A stretch of DNA of 64,000 nucleotides from Kordia zhangzhouensis (GTDB lineage: Bacteria; Bacteroidota; Bacteroidia; Flavobacteriales; Flavobacteriaceae). The notes under the pieces were generated by a model that made no database searches, was not told the origin of the DNA, and saw only the letters and a program-made list of their open reading frames with translations. Position 1 is the first letter of the stretch. Each line of letters starts with the position of its first letter. Of the stretch, positions 54,042-56,641 are shown in pieces. The translations under genes and the position numbers were made by a program. Location of the stretch: assembly GCF_001005305.1 (NCBI RefSeq), contig NZ_LBMH01000006.1, positions 124,001 through 188,000 on the forward strand. The letters are read 5' to 3'.

Positions 54042-56150
54042 TTACATACGTTCCGGCACTTCAATTCCCAATAAACCAAAGGCTAGTTTTATGGTGTCTC
54101 CTACTTTTTTAGACAATTGTACTCGGAAGATTTTTTTGTCTTCGTCTTCTTCTCCTAAAATGTAAATATTTTGAAAAAATGAGTTGTACAACTTTACCAA
54201 ATCATACGTATAGTTGGCAATAATTGCAGGACTTTGATTATTGGCTGCCAATTGTACCGTATCTGGATATCCTTGCAATTGTTTTAGAATTTCTTTTTCA
54301 CGAATGTCCAATTCAATACCACCGATTTCTTTTGAGTAGTCAAAATCTGCTTTTCGCAAAATTGATTGAATACGTGCATAGGTATATTGAATAAATGGCC
54401 CTGTATTTCCTGCAAAATCAATAGATTCTTTAGGATCAAAAAGGATACGCTTTTTAGGATCTATTTTTAAGATAAAGTACTTCAATGCGCCCATTCCGAT
54501 AATCTTGTACAATGCTTCTTTTTCTGTTTCCGAATAGCCATCCAACTTTCCTAACTCTTGTGAAATCTCTTTCGCTGTTGCAGCCATTTCTACCATTAAA
54601 TCATCTGCATCCACTACAGTTCCTTCACGACTTTTCATTTTTCCGCTTGGCAAATCAACCATTCCATATGACAAGTGATATAGGTTTTTAGACCAATCAA
54701 AACCAAGTTTTTTCAAGATTAAAAACAATACCTTAAAGTGGTAATCTTGCTCGTTTCCAACGGTGTAAATCATTCCACCTACATCTGGATAGTCTTTTAC
54801 ACGCTGAATTGCCGTTCCAATATCTTGTGTCATGTATACTGCAGTTCCATCGGCACGTAACACGATTTTTTCATCCAAGCCTTCATCAGTCAAGTCACAC
54901 CAAACCGAACCGTCTTCTTTTTTATAAAACACCCCTTTTTCTAAGCCTTCTTCAACAAAGTCTTTTCCTAACAAATAAGTGTCACTTTCATAGTATAATG
55001 CGTCAAAATCAACTCCCAGATTTACATATGTTTCAGCAAAACCATCATATACCCATTGATTCATCTGTTCCCATAAGGCAACCACCTCAGGATTTCCTGC
55101 TTCCCACTGGCGTAACATTTCTTGCGCTTCTTGATGAATCGGAGCTATTAATTCTAGCTCCTTCTTTAAAATTCCAAATATTTTTTTAGAATTTTTATTC
55201 GGGAATTCTATTTTCTTATTTTCTATGAAGTTTAAAACATTTATGTTTTGAGCGCTAAATTTTGCTTTTGCCTTATCATATGAATTAAAAGAAAGTGGGT
55301 TCTCTTCCAATAATTTTCTTGTAGAATAACTCTCATTCAATATTTTTGAATAATCATTAATCTCTCTTTTATAATATAAATATTTATATAAAGCTCTATT
55401 ATATGCTTCAGCGATAAGATTTATTTTCAATTCTTTATCTATTGATCTTAAAACCGAAGAATTAATTTTTCTTTTATCTCTAATCTCCTGAAACTCCTTT
55501 ATTGCAATATTAAAAATATGCTTAAGTTCTTTTTTCAATTTATTATTATAAACAACATAGTAGTTCCCTACCAATTTGTCGCCTTTCAATCCTGTAGATT
55601 GTGGCGTTTCACCATTACCAAAACGTTGCCACGCCAACATGGACTTACAAATGTGAATTCCTCGATCGTTGATGATTTGTGTTTTATATACTTTTTTTCC
55701 GGAAGCTTTGATAATTTCTGCAACACTGTATCCTAACAAGTTATTTCGGATATGCCCTAAGTGTAATGGTTTATTGGTATTCGGCGAGGAATATTCTACC
55801 ATAACTGCTTTTTCACCTTCTTTTGGTGTTTTATGCCCAAAGTAATTGTTCTTGAACACCTCTGTAAAAAAATCTAAGTAATAGCTGTCGTCAATCACAA
55901 GATTCAAAAAGCCCTTTACCACATTATATCTTTCTACTGCATCAACATTAGCCATCAAGTATGCTCCAATTTCCTCTCCCATTTGTGCAGGATTCATCTT
56001 TTTAACGCGTAACATTGGAAATATCACAACCGTGATATCCCCTTCAAAATCTTTTCGTGTAGCTTGAAACTCTACCTCATCAAGTGAGGCATTGTATAAG
56101 GATTGAAATGCTTCTTTGACTTTTACTGCTAATACTTCTTGAATATTCAT
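54042..56150 (-). CDS. argS: Arginyl-tRNA synthetase with a large internal insertion
   Basis: A 702-aa class I synthetase that charges tRNA-Arg. The ATG at 56150 is chosen because a -7 box covers 56172-56179 and the product then begins MNIQEVLAVKVKEAF as in relatives. The N-terminal Add-1 domain is followed by the HIGH motif in PLHLGHIRNN and by the Rossmann fold. The KMSK-type motif is LPSGKMKSREGTVVDADDL. The C-terminal anticodon domain ends LLGIEVPERM. Flavobacterial ArgRS is usually about 590 aa. Here about 110 extra residues sit between GDKLVGNYYVVY and the APIHQEAQEMLRQWEAG helix of the catalytic domain. The flanks are normal, so the enzyme is probably functional. Confidence 0.95.
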   Translation of the reverse strand: MNIQEVLAVKVKEAFQSLYNASLDEVEFQATRKDFEGDITVVIFPMLRVKKMNPAQMGEEIGAYLMANVDAVERYNVVKGFLNLVIDDSYYLDFFTEVFKNNYFGHKTPKEGEKAVMVEYSSPNTNKPLHLGHIRNNLLGYSVAEIIKASGKKVYKTQIINDRGIHICKSMLAWQRFGNGETPQSTGLKGDKLVGNYYVVYNNKLKKELKHIFNIAIKEFQEIRDKRKINSSVLRSIDKELKINLIAEAYNRALYKYLYYKREINDYSKILNESYSTRKLLEENPLSFNSYDKAKAKFSAQNINVLNFIENKKIEFPNKNSKKIFGILKKELELIAPIHQEAQEMLRQWEAGNPEVVALWEQMNQWVYDGFAETYVNLGVDFDALYYESDTYLLGKDFVEEGLEKGVFYKKEDGSVWCDLTDEGLDEKIVLRADGTAVYMTQDIGTAIQRVKDYPDVGGMIYTVGNEQDYHFKVLFLILKKLGFDWSKNLYHLSYGMVDLPSGKMKSREGTVVDADDLMVEMAATAKEISQELGKLDGYSETEKEALYKIIGMGALKYFILKIDPKKRILFDPKESIDFAGNTGPFIQYTYARIQSILRKADFDYSKEIGGIELDIREKEILKQLQGYPDTVQLAANNQSPAIIANYTYDLVKLYNSFFQNIYILGEEDEDKKIFRVQLSKKVGDTIKLAFGLLGIEVPERM
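55170..55517 (-). other. In-frame AT-rich insertion within argS
   Basis: Roughly residues 212-327 of ArgRS. By hand count 55201-55500 is about 24% G+C, against about 40% in 54541-54660 of the same gene. The encoded stretch is rich in Lys, Asn, Ile and Tyr (YLYYKREINDYSKILNESYS). It lacks intein splice residues and any nuclease motif I can see. Confidence 0.8.
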
Positions 56151-56227: not shown

Positions 56228-56641
56228 TTACAATGTAGCCAAATCTTGTAAGGTTTTGTTCTCTAAAACTGCCAACGTATTGTCTCGTACTTCCAACATG
56301 ATATGGTGCAATCCGCATTTGGTCTCGTCTGGACAATCATCACATTTTTCATAAAAGTTCAAACTTACACATGGAAGCATTGCTATAGGACCTTCTAAAA
56401 TCCTAATTAATGCAGCTACCTTAATTTCCTGAGGAGTTTTTATAAGATAGTATCCACCGCCTTTTCCTTTTTTAGAACCTAATAAACCGTTATTTTTAAG
56501 CTGTAATAAAATGGCCTCAAGAAATTTTTTAGAGATGTTTTCTTCCTCGGCAATCTCTGATATTAAAACAGGCGAAGTGTTGCCTTTTTGCGCGATGTAA
56601 CTTAATGCTTTAATTCCGTATTTAGTCTTTTTAGAAAGCAT
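56228..56641 (-). CDS. Rrf2-family transcriptional regulator
   Basis: A 137-aa winged-helix regulator. The N-terminal MLSKKTKYGIKALSYIA and SEIAEEENISKKFLEAILLQLKNNGLL form the DNA-binding domain, with the wing KKGKGGGYYL. The C-terminal half has cysteines in CVSLNFYEKCDDCPDETKC, a pattern like the Fe-S or redox-sensing cysteines of IscR and NsrR, although CGLHH follows instead of the canonical spacing. It probably senses iron-sulfur or redox status; the target genes are not evident. It diverges from the gene at 56968. Confidence 0.92.
   Translation of the reverse strand: MLSKKTKYGIKALSYIAQKGNTSPVLISEIAEEENISKKFLEAILLQLKNNGLLGSKKGKGGGYYLIKTPQEIKVAALIRILEGPIAMLPCVSLNFYEKCDDCPDETKCGLHHIMLEVRDNTLAVLENKTLQDLATL

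What the first reader, a model, noticed from the sequence alone, without database searches (positions are those of the whole stretch)
55170..55517. ArgRS carries a 110-residue AT-rich insertion in its catalytic domain
The synthetase is 702 aa instead of the usual 590 or so. The extra stretch sits at one point of the catalytic domain between normal family sequence, is open in frame over more than 110 codons, is Lys/Asn/Ile/Tyr-rich, and is about 24% G+C against about 40% nearby. It has no intein termini. It could be a recent gain of an expressed insert, a tRNA- or partner-binding domain, or a decayed mobile element kept in frame.
Basis: partly seen in the sequence, partly recalled or inferred. 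Interest (0 to 1): 0.75.

Follow-up and report, generated by a model that had tools for sequence, protein, structure and literature searches.

The report
Swappable insert in arginyl-tRNA synthetase
An essential protein-making enzyme carries, at one fixed spot on its surface, an extra helical piece that differs completely between close relatives and recurs in distant ones, as if that surface were repeatedly swapped, perhaps to dodge something that attacks the enzyme.

Summary
argS (54042-56150, minus strand, 702 aa) has 149 residues (window 55107-55553; 24.4% G+C against 36.3% in the rest of the gene) where most fetched relatives have a conserved 39-residue hairpin. Related inserts evolve as protein under relaxed purifying selection.

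It is more than one odd insert. Among 11 genomes of the genus this site holds four kinds of sequence: the ordinary hairpin (5), an 83-residue form (2), a 146-residue form (3) and the window's form (1). Relatives of each long form occur in other genera, yet the rest of each ArgRS groups with its own genus; holding the flanks of each form together as one clade is rejected. So a segment is gained, lost or swapped inside a vertically inherited essential gene, at least 11 changes on the tree. Models predict helices; in Hufsiella's insert confidently, in the window's only partly. One IleRS of the genus shows the same pattern.

What drives it is not shown. I favour escape from an ArgRS-directed antagonist (0.35), with tolerated drift of a surface hairpin close behind (0.3). 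No antagonist was found.

The parts
54042..56150 (-). argS, arginyl-tRNA synthetase, 702 aa plus stop codon
   Evidence: Pfam tRNA-synt_1d, DALR_1 and Arg_tRNA_synt_N; NCBIfam TIGR00456 argS 402.7 bits against cut-off 261.65
55107..55553 (-). variable segment, residues 200-348 (149 aa in place of the ordinary 39)
   Evidence: alignment boundaries; coordinates and G+C
55554..56150 (-). N-terminal flank, residues 1-199 (N-terminal domain and first part of the catalytic domain)
54045..55106 (-). C-terminal flank, residues 349-702 (second part of the catalytic domain and DALR anticodon-binding domain)
55752..55763 (-). HLGH signature of class I synthetases, residues 130-133
   Evidence: the name of the motif is recalled
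54627..54641 (-). KMKSR, KMSKS-like signature, residues 504-508
   Evidence: the name of the motif is recalled
56228..56641 (-). Rrf2-family regulator next to argS, beside argS in 11 of 11 genus loci; context only, not part of the insert
   Evidence: for the neighbourhood; for the family

Best explanation
Shown: one surface hairpin of the ArgRS catalytic domain is a site at which whole segments of 39 to 163 residues replace one another, while the rest of the enzyme is inherited vertically. Shown by prediction only: the long forms are helical extensions of that hairpin. Inferred: the segments spread by recombination between argS alleles, the conserved stretches on both sides serving as the recombination arms. 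Inferred and least certain: the variants are kept because they change a surface that some antagonist of ArgRS (a phage protein, an interbacterial toxin or an inhibitor) has to recognise, so a rare form escapes. Catalysis is left to the untouched core.
For: Four kinds of sequence at one site in 11 genomes of one genus. Each long form has relatives in another genus above a shuffled control (ends trimmed, 18 inserts, best of 6120 shuffled comparisons 10.6 bits): window with G162 14.6 bits; G427, L043 and G087 27-43; G003, G004, G006 with G744 22-32; G001, G005 with Winogradskyella L044 13-16. Flanks follow taxonomy, and one clade per form is rejected: p-AU 1.9e-5, 1.4e-3, 5.5e-5 and 2.0e-61. At least 11 changes of state over 109 rows, 4 of them inside the genus. 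Insert dN is 3-9 times flank dN in G006/G004 and dN/dS stays near 0.05-0.24 in four same-genus pairs, so it is translated and constrained. A second essential synthetase of the genus, IleRS of G008, shows the same pattern: flanks 96% and 94% identical to G007, segment unrelated to G007 but 56% identical to that of another genus. MetRS and AlaRS of the same 11 genomes show no such change.
Against: No antagonist was found: no partner gene is shared beside argS, no phage match, no PHROGs family better than E 0.0017. Pairwise dN/dS is below 1, so positive selection is not shown. Outside this genus the long forms are rare, which fits a costly or nearly neutral trait as well. Monophyly of the three 146-residue forms within the genus is not rejected (p-AU 0.208), so exchange inside the genus is less certain than between genera. 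I know of no ArgRS-directed phage protein or toxin, and none came up.
Confidence: 0.35

Rival explanations
1. Tolerated structural drift. The hairpin tip is a lightly constrained surface loop that accepts helical extensions, which arise, diverge fast and are lost, with little effect on fitness.
For: Relaxed constraint of the inserts against the flanks; low confidence of the window's insert, residues 261-317 under pLDDT 50; third-position G+C below expectation in 13 of 16 long forms, by 2 or more standard deviations in 7; rarity outside the genus.
Against: Random extensions would not recur as recognisable relatives in other genera. The ordinary tip is itself conserved over 95 rows. The Hufsiella insert is a confident fold, pLDDT 83-95. 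Drift would produce gradual length change, whereas here the forms differ wholesale.
Confidence: 0.3
2. Accessory working domain. The helical extension binds tRNA, another protein or a membrane and adjusts ArgRS to its host.
For: It extends an existing helical hairpin; inserted and appended domains with such roles are common in synthetases (recalled); purifying selection is present.
Against: Closest relatives do without it or use unrelated forms, although tRNA-Arg and the translation machinery hardly differ between them (inference, not tested). No partner gene is conserved beside it.
Confidence: 0.2
3. A mobile or decayed genetic element kept in frame.
For: AT-rich and scattered; it sits at one exact site.
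Against: Several unrelated forms share the site; all 18 long forms are open in frame; no mobile-element family, no phage match, no strong second copy in the genome; protein-level constraint in relatives.
Confidence: 0.05

Closest known systems
Bacterial arginyl-tRNA synthetase (TIGR00456; Pfam PF00750, PF05746, PF03485)
   Same: All three Pfam domains present, signatures intact, the 20 best Foldseek matches in the PDB are ArgRS chains
   Different: 149 residues instead of 39 at one hairpin; no matching insert sequence in PDB chains (weak hits only, E 0.042 and 0.2)
Lineage-specific insertions in RNA polymerase beta subunits (BEAN and HABAS, PMC11515920, passages seen)
   Same: Insert domains in an essential universal enzyme, gained more than once
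   Different: There the insertions are described as few, old and typical of whole lineages; here forms change within one genus and relatives recur in distant genera
Conserved signature indels in Bacteroidetes and Chlorobi (PMC1887533, passages seen)
   Same: Indels in synthetases; that paper describes a 12-14 aa AlaRS insert of Chlorobi and used ArgRS for its tree
   Different: Signature indels mark clades by descent; this site does not follow clades
Antibiotic-resistant second synthetases such as MupA and MupB IleRS
   Same: Synthetase variants under antagonistic selection (recalled)
   Different: Whole extra genes rather than a swapped segment; here argS is single-copy in the window's genome

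Membership tests
Arginyl-tRNA synthetase | ArgRS family model above its curated cut-off | tested here: met
   TIGR00456 402.7 bits, cut-off 261.65
Arginyl-tRNA synthetase | class I signatures HLGH and KMSKS-like | tested here: met
   HLGH at 130, KMKSR at 504
Arginyl-tRNA synthetase | fold | tested here: met
   model mean pLDDT 82.5, best PDB matches 2zue and 1f7u
Arginyl-tRNA synthetase | aminoacylation activity | not testable with these tools
   needs a bench assay
Intein or other mobile element | element domains (endonuclease, splicing, transposase) | tested here: not met
   no family in Pfam at E up to 1 for the window insert; nothing named in PHROGs
Conserved signature indel (clade marker) | present in all members of a clade and inherited with it | tested here: not met
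   4 kinds in 11 genomes of one genus; one clade per form rejected
Antagonist-driven variable surface | several unrelated alternatives at one surface site with vertical flanks | tested here: met
Antagonist-driven variable surface | dN/dS above 1 at the variable site | tested here: not met
   0.05-0.24 (NG86) in four same-genus pairs; dS near saturation, whole-segment averages only
Antagonist-driven variable surface | a known antagonist that contacts the site | tested here: inconclusive
   none found in phage, viral-contig and family searches; no such search can exclude one

The most novel reading that the evidence does not exclude
Essential aminoacyl-tRNA synthetases of Flavobacteriaceae, ArgRS and at least IleRS, carry multi-allelic surface modules that are exchanged across species like variable surface antigens, which points to an undescribed class of phage proteins, toxins or inhibitors that act by recognising synthetases.
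Probability: 0.28. Interest if true: 0.85.

Novelty: new variant of a known kind. Interest (0 to 1): 0.58.

Why it matters
Insert domains in synthetases are familiar, but they usually mark lineages. A site where an essential enzyme takes unrelated modules within one genus, while the rest of the gene is vertical, would be a natural pointer to whatever attacks that enzyme, and a tested set of interchangeable surface modules. It also warns that argS, often used as a phylogenetic marker, contains a stretch that must be cut out first.

Tried and rejected
Intein or mobile element: rejected. Whole-gene transfer of argS with its insert: rejected by the flank tree and the AU tests. Second argS copy: one search gives one match in G000, G003, G004, G006 and, in the others, two matches that are the two halves of one gene. 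Partner gene beside argS: none shared. One single family for all long forms: I first pooled seven inserts as family A; with ends trimmed and a shuffled control only four groups stand, window with G162; G427, L043, G087; G003, G004, G006, G744; G001, G005, L044. L041, L042, L046, L047 and L048 stay unassigned; the link of L045 to the third group is at the level of the control (11.4 against 10.6 bits). The 11 changes were counted with the pooled labels, so splitting them cannot lower the count.

Homologues by profile: one search gave 40 of 299 genomes at E up to 0.01, of which 3 are strong argS hits (G162, G000, G087); the other 37 are weak. I looked at 9 of those 37 loci; they read as one ~600-aa protein family and the one I scanned, L139, is BatD. 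I take that as a short helix resemblance, not homology. Phylum samples: 1 of 345 (the window itself), 1 of 345 (G744). A length frequency was given up because its listing was cut.

Structure: the pdb_via library was not available, so Foldseek alone was used; the insert was not searched apart from the enzyme. Distance of the insert from bound tRNA could not be measured.

Papers: searches showed listings only, and none described such a site in ArgRS; passages were seen of PMC1887533, PMC11515920 and PMC7916415. Most subscription papers are not in this library.

Full report
Observation. The window holds argS on the minus strand at 54042-56150, 702 aa from its conserved ATG. Residues 200-348 (window 55107-55553) stand where ordinary relatives have 39 residues. 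G+C is 24.4% there against 36.3% in the rest of the gene. Pfam sees ArgRS on both sides and nothing in the stretch.

Relatives. Of 60 related genomes, 7 have an open frame over 640 aa; one of these, G031, is ordinary at the site, so 6 are long, all in the window's genus. For 30 of the other rows no locus was read and the site is inferred from length. All 11 genomes of the genus were read: five ordinary (G002, G007, G008, G009, G010), two with 83 residues (G001, G005), three with 146 (G003, G004, G006), and the window with 149. Of 113 distinct ArgRS rows fetched in all, 95 have exactly 39 residues and 18 have 75 to 163; this set was picked by similarity and by length, so it gives no frequency. 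Samples give one: strong profile hits to the pooled window-type inserts in 3 of 299 genomes of the family and 1 of 345 of the phylum, the window itself; the 146-type in 1 of 345.

Same site, different sequences. With the shared ends trimmed and 6120 shuffled comparisons as control (best 10.6 bits), four groups of inserts stand: the window with G162 (14.6 bits); G427, L043 and G087 (27-43 bits); G003, G004, G006 with G744 (22-32 bits across genera); G001 and G005 with a Winogradskyella, L044 (13.0-15.8 bits). The first and the last are only modestly above control. L041, L042, L046, L047 and L048 stay unassigned, and L045 is borderline.

Vertical flanks. A tree of 111 ArgRS without the segment follows taxonomy: long and ordinary rows mix within Flavobacterium, Winogradskyella and the window's genus (36 of 108 inner branches well supported). 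L041, filed as a Limnohabitans bin, falls in Flavobacterium, so that contig is probably misbinned. Holding the flanks of each insert group together is rejected: p-AU 1.9e-5 and 1.4e-3, 5.5e-5 and 2.0e-61. These tests used 41 of 113 rows. The three 146-residue rows of the genus alone are not rejected as a clade (0.208). With L045-L048 left out, 109 rows need at least 11 changes of state, 4 of them within the genus.

Selection and composition. In G006/G004, insert dN is 0.230 against 0.072 and 0.025 in the flanks; in four same-genus pairs insert dN/dS is 0.05 to 0.24 by NG86. YN00 failed for several pairs and dS is near saturation, so only the direction is safe: translated, constrained, faster than the flanks, not shown to be under positive selection. 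Third-position G+C of the insert is below that expected from the flanks' codon usage in 13 of 16 long forms, by 2 standard deviations or more in 7, the window among them (z -2.1), while the 83-residue forms are not depressed. Low G+C is thus partly composition (48% K, N, I, F, Y in the window's insert against 31% in its flanks) and partly codon choice.

Structure. The window model (40 sequences) has mean pLDDT 82.5; the insert is all-helical, its first helix (190-227) prolonging the ordinary hairpin, but residues 261-317 are under 50. The ArgRS of Hufsiella, whose insert is unassigned or borderline to the 146 type, gives mean 87.3 with the insert region at 83-95 and long helices 211-244 and 276-306. 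The first 20 Foldseek hits for the window model are ArgRS chains.

Surroundings. argS has an Rrf2-family gene beside it in 11 of 11 genus loci; no other gene goes with the long forms. G003 has a restriction-modification methylase next to argS, the other long forms in the genus do not show one in the stretch read.

A second synthetase. As controls I looked at other synthetases of the 11 genomes. MetRS core length is identical in 11 of 11 and AlaRS frames are 870-894 aa. In PF00133 the shorter enzyme is constant, but one IleRS, that of G008, spans 2319 bp against 2103-2109 in the other ten (NCBIfam ileS). Its segment replaces about 17 residues by 88; flanks are 96% and 94% identical to G007; the segment is 56% identical to that of G166, another genus, and 25% to G158 (2 of 299 genomes). 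So the pattern is not confined to ArgRS. G008's own ArgRS is ordinary.

Mechanism. Shown: segment replacement at one hairpin with vertical flanks. Inferred: recombination between alleles, because conserved sequence surrounds the site and whole-gene transfer is rejected. Not shown: why. Escape from an antagonist explains several unrelated alternatives, recurrence in distant genera, fast change and a second essential synthetase; it lacks an antagonist and a dN/dS signal. Tolerated drift explains rarity, weak constraint and poor model confidence; it does not explain recurrence of related modules. An accessory domain explains constraint; it does not explain why sister species do without it.

Known. 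ArgRS activates arginine only with tRNA present (PMC7916415, passage), so a bulky module near the catalytic domain could matter, but its place relative to tRNA was not measured. Lineage-specific insertions in RNA polymerase (PMC11515920, passages) and signature indels (PMC1887533, passages) are the nearest described kinds and differ by following lineages. Searches listed no paper on such a site; the library lacks most subscription journals.

Noticed in passing
L177 1062-4682 (IleRS of G008): IleRS with an 88-residue segment in place of about 17, shared at 56% with IleRS of another genus (G166), flanks vertical; same pattern as ArgRS.
   Followed up: partly
L167 (IleRS of the window's genome): A 15-residue extra stretch in IleRS, absent from the other ten genomes of the genus.
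   Followed up: no
G005:C34, G007:C1, G006:C6, G004:C1: 4 of 11 genomes carry an additional MetRS-like gene (503-707 aa frames) beside the ordinary MetRS.
   Followed up: no
L125 3511-5217: Eco57I-type DNA methylase gene directly beside argS in G003, with an unassigned 400-aa ORF next to it.
   Followed up: partly
L139 4-1785 and similar loci: The pooled insert profile weakly matches the C-terminal helix of BatD-like proteins in many Flavobacteriaceae; 9 of 37 weak loci looked at.
   Followed up: partly
L134 (ArgRS of G009): The C-terminal 160 residues of ArgRS are far more diverged (56-66%) than the rest, unlike the other genus members; a possible separate recombination of the anticodon-binding domain.
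   Followed up: no
L041, L072, L103: ArgRS contigs filed under Limnohabitans, Klebsiella and Nitrotoga bins fall inside Flavobacterium in the tree: probably misbinned.
   Followed up: no
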